Source of the DNA: a virus
IMG/VR virus record: IMGVR_UViG_3300025079_000023
Span: 1-26,155 of that record
Reading direction: 5' to 3' (one strand)
DNA: 26,155 bases
Below, piece by piece: positions 69 through 25,021 of the stretch. A program made the translations under genes and the position numbers. How positions within the stretch are numbered: position 1 is the first letter of the stretch; every line of letters begins with the position of its first letter. The notes below the pieces were generated by a model that did not search any database, was not told the DNA's origin, and saw only the letters and a list, made by a program, of their open reading frames with translations.

Positions 69-890
69 ATCTGTTTCTGTACTTGTCGTTCCAAAATAAT
101 CCCTAGCTGTTGCGGCAGCGTTGTCTCTGTTATCTGGGTTTAAATAAGTATAACCTTTAACCGCATCAGGAACTCTACTCCATCCGTCATTAGTACTTCC
201 TGTTGTGTCGGTTGCAGGATCGTACCAATAAAAAGTCATAGAATCAAGATACTCACCACCTAAACCCCTAGAACCTATATCACTAAAATCATAAGGGCTA
301 TATGCTTTTGTTTCTGTTGTTGTCTGACCTTCTGAACCTGCTGTTGTTGTACCTGTTTGAGCTTCTGCTGCAGCTTTTTCTTCTGCAAGTCTTTTTTGTA
401 CTCTTTCTTCTTCTGCTGTCGTACCTGCTGTCGTACCTGCTGTCGTACCTGCTGTCGTACCTGCTGTCGTACCTGCTGTCGTACCTGTTTCCGCGCTTTG
501 ATCTATTTCATCATATGTATAATCATAAAGATCCTCACCAGGACCATCATCATAAGCATATTCTACATAATCTTCATAACCATATCCTGCAGGATTGTAG
601 TTTAATTCTTGTTCTACTTCTTGTCCTGCGGGTAAACTAGCAATACCCGCTCCAGTTGCAACACCTGCAGTTTCTTCTGCTGCTGCTGCTTCAGACTCAG
701 CAGTATCTGCTACATCTTGGTCATATGTAGTGTTTACATTTAGTTTAGCCGCGTTTGCGTTATACCGAGCTAGTGCTGCTTCTATTTGTTCTGGACTAAT
801 ATCTATTACTATATCATCGAAAGTAGGTAAATTACTTAGATCAATTCCTAAGTTAGAACCGCCTCCAAAATTTCCTGGATTGTATGACAT
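1..890 (-). CDS. Virion-associated low-complexity protein with silk-like tail, C-terminus missing
   Basis: An open frame starts at ATG 890 (MSYNPGNFGGGS...) and has no stop before the window edge, so about 296 residues are visible and the C-terminus is missing. It was read directly from the sequence. The N-terminal third is acidic and Asn/Ala-rich. An acidic Tyr-rich stretch follows (GYGYEDYVEYAYDDG), then six GTTA tetrapeptides, then a Lys/Glu helix (EEERVQKRLAEEKAAAEAQ). A more globular part contains YDFSDIGSRGLGGEYLDSMTF. The end is a pure Gly-Ala/Gly-Ser dipeptide run. The start shares TAATG with the stop of the 1115-residue gene, so it is coupled to the large virion genes. I do not recognise a family. 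A structural, fibre or internal virion role is inferred from position only. Confidence 0.75.
   Translation of the reverse strand, partial: MSYNPGNFGGGSNLGIDLSNLPTFDDIVIDISPEQIEAALARYNANAAKLNVNTTYDQDVADTAESEAAAAEETAGVATGAGIASLPAGQEVEQELNYNPAGYGYEDYVEYAYDDGPGEDLYDYTYDEIDQSAETGTTAGTTAGTTAGTTAGTTAGTTAEEERVQKRLAEEKAAAEAQTGTTTAGSEGQTTTETKAYSPYDFSDIGSRGLGGEYLDSMTFYWYDPATDTTGSTNDGWSRVPDAVKGYTYLNPDNRDNAAATARDYFGTTSTETDAGAGSGAGAGSGAGSGAGAGSG
413..487 (-). repeat. 12-bp tandem repeat encoding GTTA
   Basis: The unit gtacctgctgtc (plus strand) occurs as five perfect copies at 421-480, with partial copies on both sides, about 6.2 copies in all. The unit length is a multiple of three, so copy number can change without a frameshift. 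It encodes Gly-Thr-Thr-Ala six times in the overlapping minus-strand gene. Confidence 0.9.
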
Positions 891-8306: not shown

Positions 8307-10061
8307 TTATACTTCAAGATCATTGACTGTGTATATATTTATTGGTTTTTCTTTCCCCTTAACTTTTATAGGTTTTAATGGTCTAAGTTCTATTTGAGTT
8401 TGTGATGCTGTATTTTCCGTAATTACTATATCTTCCCCGACTTCCTTACAACTACTCTCCATTCTAGCTGCAGTGTTTACAGAGTCTCCAATAGCGGTGT
8501 AATCGAAACGCGTATCACTGCCCATGTTGCCAATTACAGCGTCACCTGTATTTAATCCAACTCCGATCTCTATCCCAATATTTTCTTCTTTTATACGTTG
8601 TTGTATCTCTATAGCCGCAAGAACCGCCTTATGTGCGTGGTTTTCTAAATCTAACGGTGCATTAAATATAGCCATCATTGCATCACCTATATACTTATCT
8701 ACCATTCCTCCATGTTTTTGTACAACTTTTTGTTGAATAGTCAGTGCTTTGTTCATAATTATAGTAACTTCTTCTGGAGGCATACTTTCGCTCATAGCTG
8801 TGAATCCCCTTACATCCGTGAACAGAAAGGTACAGTACCTTTTTTCACCTCCTAATTTTAATAACTCAGGATTGTTTTGTAGTTGTTTTACTTGGCGAGG
8901 ATCTAAATAATGTTCAAATTGTTTTTTAATCTGTTGACGTAATTTAAATTGTGTACGATAGTTTATATAAAAAGCTGTTGTTCCTGTTAGGATTCCAGTT
9001 ATTAATGTCCATGTTACGTCTATTAATAACCCGTTTTTTATTAAATAAAGCCCAGAAAACGCAGTTAAGAAAGAAATAAGGGTAGCTAATACTATTCCAG
9101 AGGTTATTCCGAATACGTTTAAAACTAACCAGATTAAGCTTATAACCACAGAAAAGATAAGAAGCTCTACAGCTAAAGCATAATCAGGTACATATGGACT
9201 ATTTTCTATAAGAATACTTTCAGCTAATGCGGTTTGTATTTTATGAGGCTCAAGATAGCCAACTGGAGTACTTAACTGTGGCATAATTCCTTTAGCAGTA
9301 AACCCCACAAAAACAAACTTATTTTCTACGTCCATCTCTCGTAACGTAGTCTGTGGGGTATCTACCCAACTTACCCATTTTCTACCGTAAGAATCTACAG
9401 GAACAGAAGGTAAACCTTTTACTCTTATTTCTTCTAAACCATTTTCGTTTGTTTTAATAACATAGGTATCTGCTCCAGCTAATATTTTTAAAACTTCTGT
9501 TCCAAAAGCTGGCACGAATCCATCAGGAGTTCTTAATAACAAAGGTAATCTACGAATTAAAGAATCAACTTCAGGTCTGGCTACTGCAATTCCTTGTGAA
9601 GCATTTTGTTTTAAAATGTCTATGTTTTGTACTACTCCTTGAGCCTCTATCCCCCCGATATTTTCTCCTAAAATTACTGTGCCTGTGGTCGGTGGGTAAT
9701 TATCTGTATCGTTTTCATACATAGCTAACACACTAGGAGCAAAACCTAGTGCTTCCATAAATTCAAAATCCCCTCCGAATCTATCGGGTTGTGGAAAAGC
9801 AACAACCCAACCGACACCTATCGCACCTTTTCGTAATAAGTTAATTTGTATCTGTGCTAAAGTCTGTCTGGATAACGGGTATCCCCCCTCGTTTGTTATG
9901 TCTTCTTCTGTAATATTTAAAATTGTAAAATAACCAGAAGGTTGTTGTTTAGGAAGAAAAGCATCAAATGTTTTTAGTTTTAATACTTCTAACGGAGTTG
10001 TTTGAAACGCTAACGGAAGAAGTAAAACTATAAATAAAATTGTAAAAACTATTTTCTTCAT
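8307..10061 (-). CDS. CHASE2-domain class III adenylate cyclase (membrane sensor)
   Basis: 584 residues. It has an N-terminal signal-anchor (1-20), a CHASE2-like extracytoplasmic sensor (about 25-290, with the typical end FVFVGFTAKGIMPQLSTPVG), three transmembrane helices (about 296-318, 320-342, 346-366), then the linker FEHYLDPRQVKQL and the cyclase domain (about 405-580). The catalytic set looks complete: metal aspartates D416 (FLFTDVRGF) and D460 (KYIGDAMMAIF), substrate Lys K456, Thr T522 (DYTAIGD), and transition-state N529 and R533 (SVNTAARME). Lys/Thr is the class IIIb pattern that favours ATP. By family knowledge it should make cAMP in the cytoplasm in response to an envelope signal. 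It shares TGATG with the FecR gene, the usual bacterial partner. It is an unusual cargo for a phage operon. The identity is firm; the ligand is unknown. Confidence 0.95.
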   Translation of the reverse strand: MKKIVFTILFIVLLLPLAFQTTPLEVLKLKTFDAFLPKQQPSGYFTILNITEEDITNEGGYPLSRQTLAQIQINLLRKGAIGVGWVVAFPQPDRFGGDFEFMEALGFAPSVLAMYENDTDNYPPTTGTVILGENIGGIEAQGVVQNIDILKQNASQGIAVARPEVDSLIRRLPLLLRTPDGFVPAFGTEVLKILAGADTYVIKTNENGLEEIRVKGLPSVPVDSYGRKWVSWVDTPQTTLREMDVENKFVFVGFTAKGIMPQLSTPVGYLEPHKIQTALAESILIENSPYVPDYALAVELLIFSVVISLIWLVLNVFGITSGIVLATLISFLTAFSGLYLIKNGLLIDVTWTLITGILTGTTAFYINYRTQFKLRQQIKKQFEHYLDPRQVKQLQNNPELLKLGGEKRYCTFLFTDVRGFTAMSESMPPEEVTIIMNKALTIQQKVVQKHGGMVDKYIGDAMMAIFNAPLDLENHAHKAVLAAIEIQQRIKEENIGIEIGVGLNTGDAVIGNMGSDTRFDYTAIGDSVNTAARMESSCKEVGEDIVITENTASQTQIELRPLKPIKVKGKEKPINIYTVNDLEV

Positions 10062-11179
10062 CAGTTTCCTTGTTTTATGTTTATAGTATTTGAAGAACCA
10101 CCGTTAACTTTAATTATGTTTTCTACACCATTTTGTAACAGGACTAAGGTATAAGAACTTGATCCGTCAAGGTCTATTCGTACTGTTTCTCCTACACTTC
10201 TTCTTAAACTAATAAGTTGTCCTGTAATAATTGTTGTTATTTGGCTTACTTTGTCCTGACCTATTTGTGTACCTGTTATTTTTATTCCAGTCGCAATTTG
10301 ATTTAATTGATCTTCTTCAGCTCCTATGGCTAAAGCATCAAGTATATTAAGTAAGTCTTCAAGAAAGTTTACGTCAAGATAATTTATATCTAGTTCTGTA
10401 AATGTTAAATCAGCTTCGTTATCTAAAAAATCTTCTGCTAAAAAATCTACATCTAAATCATTAAAATCTAAATAATCTGCTGTAGTGCCTGTTTGTGATT
10501 CTTCTTCTATATTATCTTTTTCATTAGGAGAGTTTACTATCAACATGTTGTCGATAAACTCTAAACTTATGTCTAACGTCACGGGTTTAGAAGGGACTTG
10601 GTTATAGGTCATAGCTGTCGTGGCTTGATACGGTTGGTTCAACACAACTTGACCCATAGCTGTAGCTACAACTATCTCTCCACTAGATTCCCCGTACTCG
10701 TCGGGCAATAAAATAACTAAAGAAGCACCTGTTTCTGGAGTTGTTGTAATCGTAAAATCTGTGCCTCTAACAAACACATCAGCACTGGGAGTACTGATTT
10801 TTATATTCTTTTTATTATTAAATTTACCTGTTACGAATCTTGCTGTTCCACTAGCAAACCTAAGAGCCATTTCAGATTTTTTAGGATTAGGATCATAAAT
10901 ATATGTATCTATAACTAACTTACTATGATCCATAACGCGAACAATCGTATCGTCAGCAAACGTAATCGCGACTCGACCAGTTTCTGTTTTGACATTATCC
11001 ATTTGCTGGATAGGAAACGATAGTTCTGCGCCATACGGCTTGTCTCGTACAACCTGAGCATTGCCTTTTAGCTCACTGATACTTCCTATATCAACAGCTT
11101 GTGCCTGTGCCTTGGTCGTTTTGAACGACGCAGACAGTAGAAGTGCTAGTACCAGAGCTAAGTATTTTAAGCCAGTCAT
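10061..11179 (-). CDS. Secreted FecR-domain protein with curlin-like C-terminal repeats
   Basis: 372 residues. A signal peptide (MTGLKYLALVLALLLSASF..., probable cut after AQA near 26) is followed by a FecR domain at about 30-190: GNAQVVR, TETGRVAITFADDTIVRV, and the hallmark ISTPSADVFVRGTDFTI at 128-144. Residues about 235-282 are an acidic repeat of short YLDFNDLDVDFLAEDFLD-type units. The last 28 residues (LVLLQNGVENIIKVN... SSNTINIKQGN) look like curlin repeats. This FecR domain is not linked to a sigma factor or TonB receptor but to a CHASE2 cyclase, with which it is translationally coupled. Its first 89 bases overlap the curlin-like gene in another frame, so the signal peptide is written over that gene's end. 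It probably acts in the periplasm as a ligand-binding or cyclase-modulating partner. Confidence 0.9.
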   Translation of the reverse strand: MTGLKYLALVLALLLSASFKTTKAQAQAVDIGSISELKGNAQVVRDKPYGAELSFPIQQMDNVKTETGRVAITFADDTIVRVMDHSKLVIDTYIYDPNPKKSEMALRFASGTARFVTGKFNNKKNIKISTPSADVFVRGTDFTITTTPETGASLVILLPDEYGESSGEIVVATAMGQVVLNQPYQATTAMTYNQVPSKPVTLDISLEFIDNMLIVNSPNEKDNIEEESQTGTTADYLDFNDLDVDFLAEDFLDNEADLTFTELDINYLDVNFLEDLLNILDALAIGAEEDQLNQIATGIKITGTQIGQDKVSQITTIITGQLISLRRSVGETVRIDLDGSSSYTLVLLQNGVENIIKVNGGSSNTINIKQGN

Positions 11180-11804
11180 TATCTAATGTTGATGATTGTG
11201 TAATGTTAAATGTTCTATTAGCCCCGTCGTGGTCTAGGTAAAAGTAATTACCCGCATAACCAGTAGCTGTGTGTGTTAAAGCATTATCTGATCCGTCTAT
11301 GCTGACATAGTTTGTAGCAGCATCTACATTGATTGAAGATATAATTGTATTACTAGAACCATTAATAATCCAATCTAGGTCTAATGTACTGGCTAAAGCA
11401 GAAGTAGCTTGGTTTAAAGTAAATGTATTACTATTTCCAGTCACGTCCACATTAACATTTGATGAATCTGCTCCGTAAGTTGCTGTCTTATCGGTGTTCA
11501 TATTAAAAGTATTACTGTTGCCGTCAAATTCAAAAAGCCCTGTATATGAGTCTGAAACAATATCACCTAAAAACTTGTTTGTATCTCCGATCTGGTTTAT
11601 GTCTAAAGTAAGCGCTGTCCCTACTAAATTTAAATCAGTCATAGAACCTGCTGCTGCAGTGGCTCCTCCGATAATATTACCAGAACCTAATTGTTCTAAA
11701 TCTATATTAGAATTAGATGCTCCTGAACTTTGATCAATAAATATTTCGTTATCTGCTCCGTAAATAGGTGCACAAAATATAAGTATAAATAGATATTTTT
11801 TCAT
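11091..11804 (-). CDS. Secreted curlin-like repeat protein
   Basis: The start is the ATG at 11804 (MKKYLFILIF...), because GGAGG lies 8 bases upstream and ATGA overlaps the csgG stop; a TTG in the same frame 15 bases upstream is less likely. It has 237 residues with a signal peptide cut near G16/A17. The mature protein is Asn/Ser/Thr/Asp/Gly-rich. It has two good curlin-type Q-x-G-x2-N motifs (EQLGSGN 37-43; NQIGDTN 70-76), then degenerate beta repeats with G-N/S/D-S-N-T-F/I (DGNSNTFNM, TGNSNTFTL, NGSSNTII, DGSDNAL, DGANRTFNITQ). There are two Cys at the end (C225, C237), which curlins lack. Position directly after csgF-csgG makes it the obvious export substrate. It could be an amyloid subunit, a nucleator (CsgB-like) or a non-amyloid beta-solenoid. 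Confidence 0.75.
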   Translation of the reverse strand: MKKYLFILIFCAPIYGADNEIFIDQSSGASNSNIDLEQLGSGNIIGGATAAAGSMTDLNLVGTALTLDINQIGDTNKFLGDIVSDSYTGLFEFDGNSNTFNMNTDKTATYGADSSNVNVDVTGNSNTFTLNQATSALASTLDLDWIINGSSNTIISSINVDAATNYVSIDGSDNALTHTATGYAGNYFYLDHDGANRTFNITQSSTLDNDWLKILSSGTSTSTVCVVQNDQGTGTSC

Positions 11805-12601
11805 TGTATTAACCTCCAATAATTTTTATCTAAACCCTCTTTAATTGTTTCTAACACAGCTGTTTCGATAGCTATTTGTAAAGCTACGCTCATCGGCTCG
11901 TTCCTAACATTTCCCCCTTCTATCTCTATAAGCTCTGTTCCCTGACTTATAAATCTAAAAACATCACTATCTAAAGAAGCTGATAAAACAGTTTTAGTAA
12001 CCAACACTTCAGTAAGGACTCTGCCCGTACTTACTGAGACCGTTCGTAAACTAATAGTAATTATATCTTCTCTATATTGTTTAGAAAAACCTATTCCTAA
12101 ATTTCTAGCCCCTGCTCCTCCAGAACTTATATTTGCTTGATACGATAACACTCCACCTGTCATAATCATATCGCCAAATTTGAGGGGTAAGAGTTTTTGT
12201 TTTTCGTCAAACGTTTCTCGAGTTGAACGAATTAGTTGTCTTTCTTTACTAACTGATTCAAGAGCGACTCGTTCGACTACTTCAAAAAACCCTGAGTGTT
12301 TAAGTGCTCGTATAAGATATGCATGTGGTGCTTGTGTAATTGCTGTAGCAAAAGTTGCATATTTAGCGTTCGATCTACGTTGCCCTGTTTGATCTTTGAA
12401 ATCATTAGCATAAACGGAAATAACTGGTTTCCTAGAAGGCTCTTCGACATCCGCTAAAGCAGTGTATAGTTTCTCAATCGAAGCAGGTTGTATATGCTTG
12501 ATCGGTGGTAAATTATTTTCTAGCGGATCAATCATCAAAGCACAACTAGAAAGTAAAACCACCAATAGGTACGATAACTTCTGTTGTATTGCCGTCTTCA
12601 T
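11801..12601 (-). CDS. csgG: CsgG-like outer-membrane lipoprotein secretion channel
   Basis: 266 residues from ATG 12601. The lipobox is L-S-S-C with the acylated Cys at 20. The CsgG signature is extensive: ISVYANDFKDQTGQ (61-74), FATAITQAPHAYLIRAL, FFEVVER, KERQLIR, the gating/plug-type stretch GDMIMTGGVLSYQANI followed by SSGGAGARNLGIG, LRTVSVSTGRVL, KTVLS, VFRFI, NEPMSVALQIAIETAV. E. coli CsgG forms a nonameric outer-membrane pore for curli subunits; this protein is slightly shorter. The constriction Phe (F84, equivalent to F56) is kept, while the preceding Asn of E. coli is Thr. An in-frame ATG further upstream (12640) would destroy the signal peptide. The first 56 bases overlap csgF in another frame. 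Identity is near certain; substrate is inferred. Confidence 0.95.
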   Translation of the reverse strand: MKTAIQQKLSYLLVVLLSSCALMIDPLENNLPPIKHIQPASIEKLYTALADVEEPSRKPVISVYANDFKDQTGQRRSNAKYATFATAITQAPHAYLIRALKHSGFFEVVERVALESVSKERQLIRSTRETFDEKQKLLPLKFGDMIMTGGVLSYQANISSGGAGARNLGIGFSKQYREDIITISLRTVSVSTGRVLTEVLVTKTVLSASLDSDVFRFISQGTELIEIEGGNVRNEPMSVALQIAIETAVLETIKEGLDKNYWRLIQ

Positions 12602-13013
12602 CAGTGATTGTAACTCTAACCTCCTCTTCCGTAATCTCATAATCTATCGTGTTTCCATCAAGTTCCATAGATCCACTTTTGTTTGTATCTTCTCCAAACA
12701 ATGCAGCTTCTACTTGCCTAGCAATGTTTGCATAAATTCGTGAAGTAAGGTTGCGCATAAACCTAGCTTCCACTGTGTTATTTTCTTCTCTTTCTATTTC
12801 GTCTTTAAGAGCCTGTATTTCTTCTTCTATAGCTTGTTTGCGATTAGCTTCTTGGTTTTCTATAGTTAAATAATGACTAGAAGTTCCTTCTCCGTTAAAA
12901 GAAGGACTTTTAAACTGATGCACCATTTCATCAGCCTGTACTTGTTGTAGAACTACTACAAGTAATACTATAGATAAACCTATTATTGCAAAAAGATTAT
13001 CATGTTTGTTCAT
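12546..13013 (-). CDS. csgF: CsgF-like curli assembly factor
   Basis: 155 residues from ATG 13013; an in-frame TTG directly before it is less likely. The signal peptide or anchor is residues 1-28 (IIGLSIVLLVVVLQQVQA). The mature N-terminus MVHQFKSPSFNGEGTSSHYL matches the CsgF segment F-x-N-P-x-FGG-N, the part that inserts into the CsgG pore. A charged helix follows (QAIEEEIQALKDEIEREENN), then ARFMRNLTSRIYANIARQ, equivalent to the QAIQSQIL region. The C-terminal beta part (GSMELDGNTIDYEITEEEVR, VTITDEDGNTTEVIV) parallels E. coli GRMVTNDYIVDI...LNVTDRKTG. It is longer and much more acidic than E. coli CsgF. The start shares TGATG with the preceding membrane-protein gene, tying it to the phage operon. 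Confidence 0.88.
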   Translation of the reverse strand: MNKHDNLFAIIGLSIVLLVVVLQQVQADEMVHQFKSPSFNGEGTSSHYLTIENQEANRKQAIEEEIQALKDEIEREENNTVEARFMRNLTSRIYANIARQVEAALFGEDTNKSGSMELDGNTIDYEITEEEVRVTITDEDGNTTEVIVPIGGFTF

Positions 13014-13363
13014 CAATCTTTACGTTGGTCGTCTCTATCCGCTTTAGCGATTTTATCTATGTCTATAAGATTAGGAACTCCTAGGATTGTTTTGATCATA
13101 GTATCTTGCCTAATAATTTCATTATCTAGAGAACGTATTCTGTCAATCAATGCTACTAAAATACCATGTTGTGAATCTAGTTTGCCCCCTAGCCTTTCTT
13201 CCATTGCTGCTATTTGTACTGCAACTTTTTCATCTAAGACATCTAGCTTTGTTTCCATGCCATCAATAATTCTATTGATAAGTTTCCATATAAAGAAACC
13301 TAAACCCAATGCCGCTGCAATAGGAAAACCAACTTCGTTTATAAATGTTACTGCTTGATCCAT
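13013..13363 (-). CDS. Small membrane protein with coiled coil, holin-like
   Basis: 116 residues. One N-terminal transmembrane helix (about 9-28, VGFPIAAALGLGFFIWKLIN) is followed by a long heptad-like helix (GMETKLDVLDEKVAVQIAAMEERL) and a charged tail. TM-plus-coiled-coil proteins of this size beside an endolysin and holin are often second holins or antiholins (BhlA/XhlA style), or phage inner-membrane accessory proteins. It shares TAATG with the holin gene upstream and TGATG with csgF downstream. No residue-level match allows a firm name. Confidence 0.75.
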   Translation of the reverse strand: MDQAVTFINEVGFPIAAALGLGFFIWKLINRIIDGMETKLDVLDEKVAVQIAAMEERLGGKLDSQHGILVALIDRIRSLDNEIIRQDTMIKTILGVPNLIDIDKIAKADRDDQRKD

Positions 13364-18288: not shown

Positions 18289-21174
18289 TTATTCTCCGTT
18301 TAATTTATTTTCTAATTCTTCAACTTTTGCCGAAAGTTCTTGTACTGCTTTTATAAGTGGATGTACAAACATCTCTTGTGATATAGCTTGTATGCTACTA
18401 CCTTCTTCTACATTCCATCCACCAAAGTCTGTAATATTATGTTTATCTAAAGATTCTTTAACTTCTTGTGCTATAAGACCATACATTTTTTCTTTATATT
18501 CAGGTTCTGACTCTTCTTCATTATAGTCAGGCAAAGTGTTATCTATATCTGCTTTAGCTTTCCAAGTAAAAGTTACAGGTTTCAAATCATTTATAAATGC
18601 TAAACCACAATCATTATTAGGTGTTATGTTCTCTTTGTACCTTTCATCAGATACCCTAGTCCAAGAAGCGTTACTATCAAAATTATTATAGACTCTATCG
18701 CTTCCTGTAGAAGTACCAAATGTAAGCGTGTTATTACCAGCACTTATGGTGTTATATCCTAAAACAATTTGATAATTACCACTATACGTAGAAGGTCTTG
18801 TACCAGAACCTAAACAGACATTACCAACTCCCGTAGTTAAAGCATCAGCAGAGTCATAACCTATAGCAACATTACTATGACCTGTGGTTATTTGACCACC
18901 TCCATCATGTCCTATACCTATGTTTCTAAAACCTGTCGTTGTACTTTGTAGGGCTGCATCTCCTAAACCTACATTAAGAGTACCTGTGGTGTTTGCTCCT
19001 AAAGCAGCACGACCAACTGCTACGTTTTGTGGTCCTGTAGTAGTAGAAATCATTGCCCCTGCACCAATAGCTACATTATAATTAGCAGAAGTGTTTGCTC
19101 CTAAAGCATTAACACCTAGACCTACGGAGTATGAGCCAGTTGTATTGGCATCCATAGCCAGATAACCTGCTGCTACATTTTCTGTGCCTGTTGTATTAGC
19201 ATATAATGCTCTTTGTCCTAATCCTGTGTTATATGAACCTGTGGTAAGAGCTTGCATAGCATCCATTCCAAAAGCAGAGTTTCTTGTTGCGGTAGTGGCT
19301 TTATCTAAAGCTCCTGCACCAACTGCTGTGTTATCAGTACCTGTAGTGTTTAATTCCAAAGCACTTATGCCAACTGCTGTGTTGTTATTAGCAGTGGTGT
19401 TAGTTTTTAAAGATTCCATACCGACAGCAGTATTAGCAGTTCCTGTCGTGTTTGCTTGTAAAGCACCTTTACCGACTGCTGTGTTGTTATCTGCTGTAGT
19501 GTTATTCCCTAAAGAACTTTTACCTAATGCTGTGTTATTGCTTCCTGTAGTAGCGTTTGATAAAGCACTATAACCAACTGCAACATTTTCAGCACCAGTA
19601 GTATTGGCATCTAAAGCTTCTGAACCTACTGATGTGTTTTCTGCACCTGTAGTGTTTGCTAATAAAGCTGTATATCCAAAAGCGGTGTTGTCATTTGCTG
19701 TTGTGTTTGCAGCTAAAGCAGATGCACCTGCTGCTGTGTTTCTTGTGCCTGTGGTGTTTACTTTTAAAGTTTCGTTTCCTAAAGCTGTGTTTGCATTTGC
19801 TGTTGTATTTGTTAGTAAAGCTTCGTTTCCTATGGCAGTATTGTAATCACCCGTAGTATTAGCCCCCAATGCTTGATTACCAACAGCAGCATTGTTTGTT
19901 CCAGTTGTATTAGCATCTAAGGATAACCTACCAACAGCAGTATTTTCAGAACCTGTCGTGTTTGCAAATAAAGCTTGATAACCAAAAGCTGAATTATTAC
20001 TAGCTGTTGTATTGTTATATAAAGATGCGTTGCCCATAGCTGTATTAGTAGCACCTGTTGTATTAGTAAATAGTGCTTCTCTACCCAACGCTGAATTATT
20101 ACTTGCAGTTGTGTTATTTGCTAAAGCACTTACACCTACTGCGGTATTAACATCCCCTGTAGTGTTATCTGCTAAAGCACTTGAACCAACGGCTGTGTTG
20201 TTAGAAGCTGTAGTGTTTGCTGACAAAGCAGACCTTCCTAATGCAGTATTAAAAGCACCTGTAGTATTGGCATCCAAAGAAAAAGAACCGACTGATACGT
20301 TATTGCCACCTGTTGTGGTAGATACCATTGCTTCCCGTCCAATAGCAACATTATCGTCACCTGTGGTGTTGGCTCGTAAAGCATCTTTACCAACAGCAGT
20401 ATTGGCAGCACCTGTAGAGTTTAAACCTAATGCATCTACTCCAACAGCCGTATTGTTATCTGCTGTAGTAGTAGTGGATAAAGAAAAATATCCGATTGCT
20501 GTGTTCCCTTCGCCTGTTGTTATAGCATCACCTGCTCTATTTCCAACTGCTACGTTTTGTTGTCCTGTGGTGTTTGCTGTAAGAGCATTAAAACCAACTG
20601 CTACATTACTGTCACCAGAAGTTAAAGCTGCAAAGACATTAACACCTACACCTGTATTTTCGTTAGCAGCATCTATAGTTCCTGTAGCGTTGTCTCCAAT
20701 CATTATTGATGAAGTACCAAAGGCTTTACTGATTATGCCATTAACAGTTAAACTAGCAAAAGCGTCTACTACGGCTGCGCCTGAACCAGCACCATCTAGG
20801 TATACTGCTTTTGCATCACCAGGAGCGATCGTTACGTTAGCTCCAGTACCTTGTGAAATTATTATGTTTTGAGAACCACTTGTTCCGTTCTCTATAAATT
20901 GCATCCTATTGATTGTGTTAGGTGCAATAGTGATTGTACAAGCTGAATCTAATGTGCCTGTATATTTAACATACATCGCCCTTACTGGATCTGTAGCTCC
21001 ATCTGCTACTGTTGAAGTATGCGTATCTGCGTTGGTGGTTATACCTTCTGTTCCAAAGCCAAGTGCTTCACCAATCAGCTCTAAATTGGTATTTGTTGTT
21101 GTTCCCCAAGTTCCTGACGCATCACCTGTCGCCATTTCATTAAGTCTAAGGTCATTTACGTATGTGCTTGCCAT
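18289..21174 (-). CDS. Tail fibre with YadA-like repeats and S74 self-cleaving chaperone
   Basis: 961 residues; GGAG lies about 9 bases before the ATG. Residues 1-40 (YVNDLRLNEMATGDASGTWG) are the conserved attachment start of marine phage fibres. Residues about 41-170 are a beta-rich shoulder. Residues 173-784 are 36 tandem 17-residue repeats with consensus N-T-A-V-G-x2-A-L-x2-N-T-T-G-x2, as in trimeric YadA/Hia head beta-rolls. The C-terminal S74 intramolecular chaperone is about 842-961, with the dyad S842 and K847 in SDERYKEN, then MYGLIAQEV and a heptad tail (LIKAVQELSAKVEELENKL). Self-cleavage would occur just before S842, removing 120 residues after trimer folding. It is the likely receptor-binding protein. 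Confidence 0.93.
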   Translation of the reverse strand: MASTYVNDLRLNEMATGDASGTWGTTTNTNLELIGEALGFGTEGITTNADTHTSTVADGATDPVRAMYVKYTGTLDSACTITIAPNTINRMQFIENGTSGSQNIIISQGTGANVTIAPGDAKAVYLDGAGSGAAVVDAFASLTVNGIISKAFGTSSIMIGDNATGTIDAANENTGVGVNVFAALTSGDSNVAVGFNALTANTTGQQNVAVGNRAGDAITTGEGNTAIGYFSLSTTTTADNNTAVGVDALGLNSTGAANTAVGKDALRANTTGDDNVAIGREAMVSTTTGGNNVSVGSFSLDANTTGAFNTALGRSALSANTTASNNTAVGSSALADNTTGDVNTAVGVSALANNTTASNNSALGREALFTNTTGATNTAMGNASLYNNTTASNNSAFGYQALFANTTGSENTAVGRLSLDANTTGTNNAAVGNQALGANTTGDYNTAIGNEALLTNTTANANTALGNETLKVNTTGTRNTAAGASALAANTTANDNTAFGYTALLANTTGAENTSVGSEALDANTTGAENVAVGYSALSNATTGSNNTALGKSSLGNNTTADNNTAVGKGALQANTTGTANTAVGMESLKTNTTANNNTAVGISALELNTTGTDNTAVGAGALDKATTATRNSAFGMDAMQALTTGSYNTGLGQRALYANTTGTENVAAGYLAMDANTTGSYSVGLGVNALGANTSANYNVAIGAGAMISTTTGPQNVAVGRAALGANTTGTLNVGLGDAALQSTTTGFRNIGIGHDGGGQITTGHSNVAIGYDSADALTTGVGNVCLGSGTRPSTYSGNYQIVLGYNTISAGNNTLTFGTSTGSDRVYNNFDSNASWTRVSDERYKENITPNNDCGLAFINDLKPVTFTWKAKADIDNTLPDYNEEESEPEYKEKMYGLIAQEVKESLDKHNITDFGGWNVEEGSSIQAISQEMFVHPLIKAVQELSAKVEELENKLNGE
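18823..20658 (-). repeat. 51-bp coding repeats (36 copies of a 17-residue unit)
   Basis: These repeats encode residues 173-784 of the tail fibre. The protein period is an exact 17 residues without insertions across 36 units, while the DNA copies have diverged. The antisense strand is also open over long stretches because of the periodicity. This is a protein repeat, not a CRISPR or transposon. Confidence 0.9.
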
Positions 21175-21222: not shown

Positions 21223-22053
21223 TTAAGCAACTTCTTCCCATCCTGGGGTCTGAGAATCAGATATGCTTGTCCAATTAGGGGTTTGTGTGTCTGATATCCC
21301 TGACCAATCAGCGTTTTGGGAATCATCTACTTTCCCCCAAACAAGTATTTGACTGATAGCTCCTGTAGCTTCTACCCCTGTCAAAGACACAATTCCTTGT
21401 GCATTTATTACTACTGTTCCTATCGCTCCTGTAGACTCTAATCCCGTAACAGAAATAAAGTTTTCGCCAACTATACTTAGGCTTCCTAAAGCCGAGGTTG
21501 CCGCAACACCTGTAGGAGATACATTAGCGTCACATATTACAGTTTCTTCACCTAATGCTATTGTAGAAGCAGCACCTGAAACACCTGTTATTGCAGCTCC
21601 TGCGGTAATTACAGTGCCTAAAGCTGTTGTTCCTACTACACCTGTTTCTGCTACATTTGCATCTGCTCGTGTAGTTAATGAACCTAGTCCACTTGTTGCT
21701 GCTAAACCTGTTAAAGAAGCTTCACCTTGCCCAGATGCAGAAACACCTCCTAATGAGGTGGTTGCTGATAAACCTGTTACAGATACATCACCTCCAGCAG
21801 AAATAGCTACAGAGCCTAAAGAAGTAGTTGCTGATAATCCTGTCTCAGTTACAACTGCGCCACCAGTAGCTGTAAGAGAGCCTATAGAGGCTGTACAAGT
21901 AACACCTGTTTCAGTTACGTTTGCATCACAAACTACTGTTTCTGTACCTAACGCAGAAGTCCCTGCAACACCTGTAAGGCTTACAGCTACATTAACTACA
22001 GCGGGCTGACCCCATGGACCAGCACCCCAGGTACTTCTACCCCAACCTGCCAT
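21223..22053 (-). CDS. Virion protein of ~22-residue beta repeats with WGAG start
   Basis: 276 residues. It starts MAGWGRSTWGAGPWGQ, a Trp/Gly motif echoed in the gp10-like protein. Residues about 22-238 consist of ten repeats with consensus V-x-x-TG-L/V-x-A-T-x2-LG-S-x-x-x (for example VSVTGLSATTSLGG). The last 36 residues hold three 11-residue units ending in Trp (DDSQNADW, SDTQTPNW, SDSQTPGW). Such a repeat should form a regular beta structure, perhaps a fibre or a decoration protein. I do not know a family name. It lies between the 143-residue protein and the fibre. Confidence 0.8.
   Translation of the reverse strand: MAGWGRSTWGAGPWGQPAVVNVAVSLTGVAGTSALGTETVVCDANVTETGVTCTASIGSLTATGGAVVTETGLSATTSLGSVAISAGGDVSVTGLSATTSLGGVSASGQGEASLTGLAATSGLGSLTTRADANVAETGVVGTTALGTVITAGAAITGVSGAASTIALGEETVICDANVSPTGVAATSALGSLSIVGENFISVTGLESTGAIGTVVINAQGIVSLTGVEATGAISQILVWGKVDDSQNADWSGISDTQTPNWTSISDSQTPGWEEVA
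21334..21993 (-). repeat. Ten 22-residue (66-bp) coding repeats
   Basis: Limits are approximate. The period is about 22 residues with T-G-L/V and L-G as anchors. Two copies with the same anchors (SGLAGTGSIDSLTT and TGLAGTGTLGSLTV) occur in the 284-residue zinc-ribbon/cupredoxin protein upstream in the operon. Confidence 0.75.
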
Positions 22054-23511: not shown

Positions 23512-24165
23512 TTACTGAGGGGGTACTCTTAAACTGTCGTACCTTGCTTCATCTCTTATATCTTTTGATTCACCTAATAATTTTAACCTTGCTAATCCTT
23601 CTTGATATTTAACATCATATGTTTGTATTTCTGCGGGGGCTAGTTTCATAAAAATAGCGGCTTCAACTAAAGAACCATATAACAAAGTATTGGATGCATT
23701 TGTAGCTAACCATGTGGTTCCTGTTCCACCTGCGTCGACTAATGAAGACGGTCTATAGAAATAATGCAGTTCAAATGTAAAGTTGCTGTTTGGTGTTGGA
23801 GCTAAAATAAAAGTATTATCGTCAAATAAAGCATAAAACAATGGGTCTCCTGTTGTTGCTGCGGCAGGAGTATAGTCTCTAATCCAAGACACATGTTTTA
23901 ATAATAAATAACTATAATTACCGCTGCTGTCAATTACAGCTAAACTACGCGGAGATAAAAAATCTGTAGGGGTTGATAAATAAGTATTACCAGAAGAAGC
24001 AGTTCCTGTGACGTTTTCTCTAAATACAGGAAGGTCTGCAGATTTTAATATTTTTTCTTCAGCTTGTTGTATAAACGTTGGTATTGTGTTTGTGAACGTT
24101 GTTTCAGTGTTATCCATGTAATTTTGGATAGCTGTGGTTAGTCCGTTGTAAGTAAATCCTGCCAT
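23512..24165 (-). CDS. Head-tail adaptor-like protein (217 aa)
   Basis: 217 residues. The segment TFTNTIPTFIQQAEEKILKS near the start, then LSTPTDFLSPRSLAV, FILAPTPNSNFTFELHYFYR and the end with DVKYQEGLARLKLLGESKDI match the adaptor proteins that join portal to tail in SU10-like and marine podoviruses (remembered pattern). It would sit in the connector ring. A second protein of similar layout lies one gene upstream. Two bases separate it from the 242-residue gene. Confidence 0.8.
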   Translation of the reverse strand: MAGFTYNGLTTAIQNYMDNTETTFTNTIPTFIQQAEEKILKSADLPVFRENVTGTASSGNTYLSTPTDFLSPRSLAVIDSSGNYSYLLLKHVSWIRDYTPAAATTGDPLFYALFDDNTFILAPTPNSNFTFELHYFYRPSSLVDAGGTGTTWLATNASNTLLYGSLVEAAIFMKLAPAEIQTYDVKYQEGLARLKLLGESKDIRDEARYDSLRVPPQ

Positions 24166-24166
24166 T

Positions 24167-25021
24167 TTAAGTATTTATTTGTCCGCCCATACCTGAGTGA
24201 TTAGTACAGTAATAGTAAAGTGTTGGAGCACCTGAGGCTACTGTTATTTGAGTGTAGGCTCCTGATGATCCTGGTGTCCCAGAAGTCGTTACTCCCGTCG
24301 TGTATGCCGATCCTCCGCCGTGTGTTCCGTCTGATGTAATAGATATTCTTAGCGGATGATTACTGTTGCTACTATCAGACTGATCAAATCTATATGCTGA
24401 ACCTTCCGAAAGATTTAAGGTTGCTGCTCTAGATCCATCTATATAGAAATAGTTTGCTCCAGAATAACTAGCTACTGTAACTGTGTAGCTAGTAAGAGAA
24501 GAAGCTCCTGTCACAGTTAATGATCCTAAAGTTCCTGTTCCAGCTAAACCTGTTGGAGTCGCTATGCTGTCAGAAACTGAAGTTGTAAGTGAATCTATAC
24601 TTCCTGTCCCTGCGAGTCCAGAAAGTTCAGAAGTTGTATCGGGGGAAGTTTCTTGGTCTACACTAACCTCTAATAGTCCTAAAGACGTTTGTCCTATAGC
24701 CCCAGAAAAAGCACTACCGATGTTTGGATCGTCTCTAAACCTCATCATATTAGTGCCTTTGACAGCTATTACAGAATCTGAAGGATTTCTAGTTGTAACT
24801 CTTCCTAACTGAGCCTGAGGTAAACTAACATCAGGTCTTGGTTGCCACAAAGCTTCTGCATCAACAGGAGGGTGAGAAGGATCTAGTTGTGGATGTTTTG
24901 GTTCATAACATTCATGACAAACTCTTGTGTGATCCCATTCAGTTTTCATAGACAAGTAAGGATATTTGAAGCCACATCTATCACAAATAGCATTAGCGTA
25001 TTTACCTGTGGCATACGCCAT
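24167..25021 (-). CDS. Virion protein with N-terminal zinc ribbon and C-terminal cupredoxin-like domain
   Basis: 284 residues. Residues 13-38 form a zinc ribbon: C13-x2-C16 and C35-x2-C38 (CDRCGFKYPY...VCHECYEPKHPQ). Residues about 133-172 hold two copies of the repeat seen in the 276-residue protein. Residues about 178-284 form a beta domain YTVTVASYSGANYFYIDGSR, SAYRFDQSDSSNSNHPLRIS, DGTHGGGSAYTTGV, ending TLYYYCTNHSGMGGQI. H222, C272, H275 and M278 fit a type 1 copper site (C-x2-H-x2-M, as in amicyanin). I recall this C-terminal domain from cyanophage and marine phage structural proteins. Copper binding is untested. It is coupled by TAATG to the upstream adaptor gene. Confidence 0.82.
   Translation of the reverse strand: MAYATGKYANAICDRCGFKYPYLSMKTEWDHTRVCHECYEPKHPQLDPSHPPVDAEALWQPRPDVSLPQAQLGRVTTRNPSDSVIAVKGTNMMRFRDDPNIGSAFSGAIGQTSLGLLEVSVDQETSPDTTSELSGLAGTGSIDSLTTSVSDSIATPTGLAGTGTLGSLTVTGASSLTSYTVTVASYSGANYFYIDGSRAATLNLSEGSAYRFDQSDSSNSNHPLRISITSDGTHGGGSAYTTGVTTSGTPGSSGAYTQITVASGAPTLYYYCTNHSGMGGQINT

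What the first reader, a model, noticed from the sequence alone, without database searches (positions are those of the whole stretch)
24167..24490. Type 1 copper-site pattern in a virion protein
H222 with C272-x2-H275-x2-M278 in a beta domain is the ligand set and order of blue-copper proteins. If loaded, virions could carry copper or do electron transfer; if not, it is a cupredoxin fold reused for stability or glycan binding. The ligands look intact.
Basis: partly seen in the sequence, partly recalled or inferred. Interest (0 to 1): 0.6.

Follow-up and report, generated by a model that had tools for sequence, protein, structure and literature searches.

The report
Copper-protein domain on a marine phage
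A marine phage carries, on a flexible tether at what is probably its neck, an optional add-on domain with the fold and the fully conserved copper-binding residues of blue-copper proteins; the same domain recurs in the structural proteins of many marine phages, so their particles may carry copper, although metal binding has not been measured.

Summary
The 284-residue protein at 24167-25021 (-) has H222, C272, H275 and M278. The domain holding them (24170-24493) is predicted with high confidence (pLDDT 93) to be an eight-stranded cupredoxin: the best structural matches are copper nitrite reductase and rusticyanin (Z 9.6, 95 residues, 2.4 A), and all 50 listed rows are cupredoxin-fold proteins. 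In 18 diverse copies only six columns are invariant, and four are the ligands. In 52 full-length relatives all four ligands are kept in every one, while the zinc-knuckle cysteines of the same protein are lost in half. A related Woeseiaceae lipoprotein domain passes Pfam's Copper-bind cut-off.

The domain is a mobile accessory module. Sister phages with 92-96% identical flanks lack it. Relatives carry it inside a loop of the second SU10-type adaptor, or fused to the first adaptor. T4-like cyanophages carry it in baseplate gp9 and gp7 and in tail fibres. The most likely reading is a surface-displayed, metal-holding decoration of the virion neck, probably for copper, acting in particle-to-cell contact or as a metal-locked fold rather than in electron transfer. 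Copper loading, virion incorporation of this exact protein and function are inferred. No paper describing it was found in the library searched.

The parts
24167..25021 (-). 284-aa protein P0001: N-terminal knuckle domain, disordered tether, C-terminal cupredoxin domain
   Evidence: ORF and translation; full-length model with an ordered knob at about residues 10-40, low-confidence residues 65-173, and ordered residues 176-284
24170..24493 (-). cupredoxin domain, residues 177-284
   Evidence: AlphaFold2 pLDDT 93.1, pTM 0.87, eight strands; Foldseek and VIA matches to cupredoxins; profile hits to T1 copper proteins
24356..24358 (-). H222, N-terminal His ligand, in an invariant His-Pro pair just before the strand at 224-227
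24206..24208 (-). C272, Cys ligand at the end of strand 268-272
24197..24199 (-). H275, second His ligand in the loop between the last two strands
24188..24190 (-). M278, axial Met ligand
24494..24799 (-). tether, residues 75-176, predicted disordered
   Evidence: pLDDT below 50 over most of residues 65-173
24800..25021 (-). N-terminal domain with C13, C16, C35 and C38 (zinc-knuckle-like); phrog_28581
   Evidence: cysteines all kept in 35 of 61 aligned proteins and all lost in 22
24167..24712 (-). segment absent from sister phages (tether end plus cupredoxin module); 58 bases in its place in L244 and L245
   Evidence: blastn of the flanks, 92-96% identity either side; 72 of 80 relatives end after 111-125 aa
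25021..25692 (-). SU10-type adaptor 1, directly upstream; its homologue in phage 023Pt_psg01 carries a cupredoxin at its N-terminus
   Evidence: PF24175 E=4e-11; 34% identity, E=6e-41 to the fusion protein
23512..24165 (-). SU10-type adaptor 2, directly downstream; homologues in L250, L001, L012 and L025 carry a cupredoxin inserted near residue 101
   Evidence: PF24175 E=8e-25; split blastp alignment; L250 fusion hits PF24175 in two stretches

Best explanation
The C-terminal third of this protein is a genuine cupredoxin domain with an intact type-1-like copper site (His222, Cys272, His275, Met278). It hangs on a roughly 100-residue flexible tether from a small N-terminal knuckle domain encoded in the neck (adaptor) gene cluster of a pelagiphage-like podovirus. 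It works as an exchangeable display module: marine phages add it to, or drop it from, neck, baseplate and fibre proteins, much as other phages do with Ig-like domains. Most likely the site takes up copper outside the reducing cytoplasm, during or after lysis. The metal then locks the domain and/or forms the contact surface used near the host or on particles; electron transfer is not its main job. Shown here: ORF, ligands, conservation, family link to copper-binding proteins, modular gain and loss. Computed prediction: the fold. Inferred: virion location of this very protein, copper as the metal, timing of loading, and the contact/display function.
For: Fold: pLDDT 93.1, eight strands. Foldseek top hits are NirK 2dv6 (E 2.6e-4) and rusticyanin (about 1e-3). 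VIA gives Z 9.6, 2.4 A over 95 residues to 2dv6, and all 50 rows listed are cupredoxin-fold proteins. Sequence: profile A5 against the PDB finds NirK, plastocyanin, amicyanin and pseudoazurin, with the C-H-M loop aligned. The relative L225 passes PF00127 Copper-bind (25.1 bits, cut-off 21.2) and 9 of 14 cellular members match it; 15 of 64 phage members match PF00127 weakly. Ligand constraint: 4 of 6 invariant columns are ligands; 52 of 52 full-length relatives keep HCHM while 26 of those 52 have lost knuckle cysteines; unbiased sets 8/8 and 8/8. Copies without the site lose Cys, His and Met together in recurring gp7 domain positions. Modularity: absent in sisters with 92-96% identical flanks, inserted within adaptor 2, fused to adaptor 1. 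Display: gp9 of T4-like cyanophages, 329 phage records with the gp9-type domain. Tether: disordered 65-173.
Against: No metal was measured and no atomic coordinates were available, so ligand geometry could not be checked. Phage structural proteins fold in the cytoplasm, where copper is scarce and apo-cupredoxins can take zinc. The second-sphere residue after the first His is Pro rather than the Asn of plastocyanin and amicyanin. The window sequence itself does not reach any Pfam family. Nothing in the neighbourhood is an obvious redox partner or host-receptor protein, and no proteome of this phage exists.
Confidence: 0.68

Rival explanations
1. The site is a real metal site but holds zinc (or is metal-free with a Cys used otherwise) in the particle; the metal is only a structural staple.
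For: Assembly in the cytoplasm favours zinc (established knowledge: cupredoxins made in E. coli cytoplasm are often recovered as zinc forms). Sites are kept in very different host proteins, as expected for a fold-locking role.
Against: The axial Met is invariant in A1 and in both unbiased sets; Met is a poor and rare zinc ligand. Exported cellular relatives reach the copper-binding Pfam family.
Confidence: 0.2
2. It is an electron-transfer cupredoxin used during infection, for example exchanging electrons with host envelope or thylakoid partners.
For: Fold and ligands as in electron carriers. Cyanophages also carry plastocyanin genes as host-derived genes (PMC3037559).
Against: The domain is fused to structural proteins, tethered, optional between sister phages and present in phages of very different hosts. 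No redox partner gene is adjacent. The virion form has no signal peptide.
Confidence: 0.08
3. Copper version of the iron 'Trojan horse': bound copper lets the particle dock on a host copper-uptake receptor.
For: Iron in HxH tail-fibre motifs is proposed to act this way, including in marine phages (PMC11705849). The domain sits in fibres, gp9 connectors and necks.
Against: No receptor is known. A neck position is not the usual receptor-binding site; neck fibres of cyanophage A-1(L) were judged not to be primary host binders (PMC10966104). The presence/absence pattern was not tied to hosts here.
Confidence: 0.12
4. A cupredoxin or Ig-like fold reused with no metal at all, the ligands being chance or relict.
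For: Degenerate copies exist in gp7-type proteins with no ligands.
Against: Ligands are the most conserved residues in the functional copies, and loss is of the Cys-His-Met set together, not drift.
Confidence: 0.03

Closest known systems
Plastocyanin/azurin family (Pfam PF00127 Copper-bind), amicyanin in particular
   Same: Cupredoxin fold; His plus Cys-x2-His-x2-Met in the last loop, amicyanin spacing; a cellular relative (L225) passes the PF00127 cut-off
   Different: Fused to phage structural proteins, no signal peptide on the virion form, invariant His-Pro instead of His-Asn, window sequence below Pfam thresholds
Copper nitrite reductase and multicopper-oxidase cupredoxin domains, rusticyanin
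   Same: Best structural matches; His-Pro also occurs at the type-1 His of laccases (own knowledge)
   Different: No type-2 or trinuclear ligands; a single small domain, not an enzyme
Cupredoxin-bearing lipoproteins of SAR86, Woeseiaceae and related marine bacteria
   Same: About 45-60% identical domain with the same ligands, usually at the C-terminus
   Different: Exported lipoproteins, some with cadherin-like parts, not virion proteins
Ig-like accessory domains of tailed phages
   Same: Optional, mobile modules added to surface structural proteins, at termini or in loops
   Different: Different fold and a conserved metal site
Iron-binding HxH motifs of phage tail fibres (Trojan horse hypothesis, PMC11705849)
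   Same: Metal carried by the virion of marine phages is the proposal
   Different: Mononuclear His2-Cys-Met cupredoxin site, not octahedral HxH iron in a trimeric fibre

Membership tests
Cupredoxin superfamily, type-1 copper site | Eight-stranded Greek-key beta sandwich of cupredoxin type | tested here: met
   (prediction)
Cupredoxin superfamily, type-1 copper site | His...Cys-x(n)-His-x(n)-Met ligand set in that order | tested here: met
Cupredoxin superfamily, type-1 copper site | Cys, second His and Met in the loop joining the last two strands, first His at the start of a middle strand | tested here: met
   DSSP strands 224-227, 268-272 and 279-283
Cupredoxin superfamily, type-1 copper site | Converging ligand geometry in three dimensions | not testable with these tools
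   model coordinates are not released to the session
Cupredoxin superfamily, type-1 copper site | Binds copper; blue or related absorption | not testable with these tools
   needs experiment
Pfam PF00127 Copper-bind | Score above the gathering cut-off for the window protein | tested here: not met
   no family at E up to 1; relative L225 does pass, 25.1 versus 21.2 bits
Pfam PF00127 Copper-bind | His followed by Asn, as in the plastocyanin and amicyanin hits (a common, not universal, feature) | tested here: not met
   invariant His-Pro in A5; plastocyanin and amicyanin rows show His-Asn
Multicopper oxidase / NirK | Type-2 or trinuclear copper ligands | tested here: not met
   only H222, H234, C272, H275 and M278 among His/Cys/Met in the domain
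Phage Ig-like accessory domains | Optional module of surface structural proteins | tested here: met
Phage Ig-like accessory domains | Ig fold | tested here: inconclusive
   all listed matches are cupredoxins; absence of Ig rows does not exclude it

The most novel reading that the evidence does not exclude
Marine tailed phages, from T4-like cyanophages (gp9, gp7) to pelagiphage-like podoviruses (neck), display genuine type-1 copper domains on their particles, so that virions are copper proteins: the copper tunes host contact and makes phage particles a carrier of colloidal copper in seawater.
Probability: 0.4. Interest if true: 0.85.

Novelty: new variant of a known kind. Interest (0 to 1): 0.68.

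Why it matters
If the sites are loaded, a large share of marine phage particles would carry a defined, tight copper site on their surface, which has not been described in the papers found. It would give a copper counterpart to the iron Trojan-horse idea, a handle on a module with no Pfam or NCBIfam family of its own that recurs in gp9, gp7, tail fibres and necks, and a possible term in the ocean's copper budget. It also shows a cupredoxin shared between phages and marine bacterial lipoproteins.

Tried and rejected
phmmer of the whole protein against PDB sequences found nothing; only profiles reached copper proteins. Pfam and NCBIfam gave no family for the window protein. The second viral scan used a pattern that contains the Cys, His and Met, as did the genome-contig scan; counts from those seeds were therefore not used as evidence for conservation of these three, and incidental, N-terminus-fetched and BLAST-fetched copies were used instead. 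Profile A1 also pulls antibody chains at E above 0.1; these are beta-sandwich look-alikes around Tyr-Tyr-Cys and were discounted in favour of structure and ligand evidence. Literature: no paper found combining cupredoxin with phage virion, tail fibre or cyanophage structure; the S-TIM5 genome paper is not held.

Full report
The finding. The ORF is 284 aa on the minus strand, and the four residues are exactly where stated. The domain is residues 177-284, window 24170-24493.

Fold. An alignment of the window domain with 63 copies from IMG/VR contigs (A5) was folded with AlphaFold2 without templates: pLDDT 93.1, pTM 0.87, eight strands. Foldseek against the PDB ranks the N-terminal cupredoxin domain of Hyphomicrobium nitrite reductase first (E 2.6e-4), then rusticyanin and pseudoazurin. 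VIA-align gives Z 9.6 with 2.4 A over 95 residues for the same chain, and all 50 listed entries are cupredoxin-fold proteins. Z values near 9 are only a little above the level the tool calls middling, but the uniformity of the list and the sequence evidence below agree. In the full-length model C272 ends strand 268-272, H275 and M278 lie in the loop before strand 279-283, and H222 sits just before strand 224-227. This is the classical layout of a type-1 site. Coordinates are not given to the session, so distances were not measured.

Sequence kinship to copper proteins. The window protein alone finds nothing in PDB sequences or Pfam. The profile of 64 copies finds 19 chains at E up to 10, and nearly all are type-1 copper proteins (copper nitrite reductases, plastocyanins, amicyanins, pseudoazurin), with the Cys-His-Met loop aligned to theirs. 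A cellular relative, the C-terminal domain of a Woeseiaceae lipoprotein (L225, 47% identical to the window domain), passes the curated Pfam cut-off of PF00127 Copper-bind (25.1 against 21.2 bits), and 9 of 14 cellular members match that family. The loop spacing C-x2-H-x2-M is that of amicyanin. One difference is consistent: the first His is followed by Pro, invariant in A5, where the plastocyanin and amicyanin hits have Asn. From own knowledge, His-Pro is the form found at the type-1 His of laccases.

Conservation of the ligands. In 18 diverse phage copies with median pairwise identity 0.38 the invariant columns are F, H, Y, C, H and M; four of the six are the ligands. If invariant columns fell at random among the 57 gap-free columns, all four ligands would be included with probability about 4e-5. 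Because two of the collection scans used patterns containing the ligands, independent sets matter more. Proteins fetched only by their N-terminal domain include 8 with the cupredoxin, and all 8 have HCHM. Nine gp9-type relatives picked down a tblastn ranking give 8 complete alignments, all HCHM, plus one cut off by the alignment. An internal contrast is the strongest argument. In 52 full-length relatives with both domains, the copper quartet is intact in 52, while the N-terminal knuckle cysteines are all intact in 26, partly lost in 4 and all lost in 22. Copies that lack the site exist. They are recurring positional domains of gp7-type proteins, in which the Cys, His and Met of the loop are gone together; one copy has HCHK.

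A mobile module. Of 80 relatives fetched by the N-terminal domain, 72 are short proteins of 111-125 aa that stop before the tether. Two of these, L244 and L245, are 94-96% and 92% identical in DNA to the window on either side, with 58 bases where the window has about 546. So the module has been gained or lost recently. In L250, L001, L012 and L025 a cupredoxin is inserted near residue 101 of the second SU10-type adaptor, with adaptor sequence continuing on both sides (the L250 fusion matches the adaptor Pfam model in two stretches). In phage 023Pt_psg01 it is fused to the N-terminus of the homologue of adaptor 1 (34% identity, E 6e-41). The same domain occurs at the C-terminus of gp9 and within gp7 of T4-like cyanophages, in tail fibres of pelagiphages and methylophages, and in S-TIM5. 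A gp9-type query finds 329 phage records. This is the behaviour of an accessory display domain.

Location in the particle. The gene lies between two SU10-type adaptor genes with overlapping or nearly touching ends. CRP-902 and DSL-LC04 place the homologue beside an annotated adaptor, and HTVC027P and HTVC023P show the same spacing of genes without annotation. The N-terminal domain is therefore probably a neck or tail component, and the cupredoxin hangs from it on a predicted disordered tether (residues 65-173). Virion incorporation of this protein was not shown.

How it most likely works. Shown: conserved ligands, modular gain and loss, fusion to structural proteins. Predicted: the fold. Inferred: copper binding, because the axial Met is invariant and the nearest annotated families bind copper; loading outside the cytoplasm; and a role in display or contact, or in locking the fold, rather than in electron transfer, because the module is optional, tethered and spread over unrelated carrier proteins and hosts. 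Rivals are zinc or no metal in the particle, electron transfer, and a copper Trojan horse; they are weighed in the fields above.

Known or new. Cupredoxins and type-1 sites are well known, and viral plastocyanin genes are known as host-derived genes (PMC3037559). Searches of the open library for cupredoxin with virion, tail fibre, cyanophage or bacteriophage returned no paper describing the domain in virion proteins. This is limited by the library and by the words used. I file it as a new variant of a known kind.

Noticed in passing
window 8307-13016 (-): Curli (type VIII secretion) cluster: CsgF, CsgG, a curlin-like repeat protein, FecR and a CHASE2 adenylate cyclase. Such clusters are described in HTVC023P-type pelagiphages (PMC9599517).
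   Followed up: partly
L199, L205, L218, L222, L225, L228, L234: SAR86, Woeseiaceae and related genomes encode proteins carrying the same domain, mostly at the C-terminus; most look like lipoproteins (Cys followed by a Gly run) and some have cadherin-like parts; function unknown.
   Followed up: partly
L094, L095, L098-L104 (gp7 homologues): gp7 of T4-like cyanophages holds one cupredoxin with ligands and a second, at a fixed position, without them; in L132, L138 and L152 the His stays but Cys, His and Met are gone.
   Followed up: partly
window 24908-24985 (-): Four cysteines of the N-terminal knuckle (13, 16, 35, 38) are lost together in many relatives (SDRSG...), although the domain is otherwise conserved.
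   Followed up: partly
window 21223-22053 (-) and the C-terminus of L240:2992-3918: Repeats of the type TGVxGTxALG in a tail-region protein of the window, in the tether of P0001 and in CRP-902 gp53, the homologue of P0001: another exchangeable C-terminal extension.
   Followed up: no
window 18289-21174 (-): Fibre protein made of many 'NTAVGxxAL..NTTG'-type repeats with an endosialidase chaperone domain (PF13884).
   Followed up: no
window 302-640: Tandem repeat seen as SYLLSYLL / CRTCCRTC in two frames near the left end.
   Followed up: no
BFVD matches A0A481Z6J5, A0A481YVH3: Beta-sandwich proteins of pithovirus- and marseillevirus-like genomes match the domain's fold.
   Followed up: no
A5 members: 24 of 64 phage copies weakly match PF25489 (At5g54830-like domain; best E 0.0011), a plant protein domain.
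   Followed up: no
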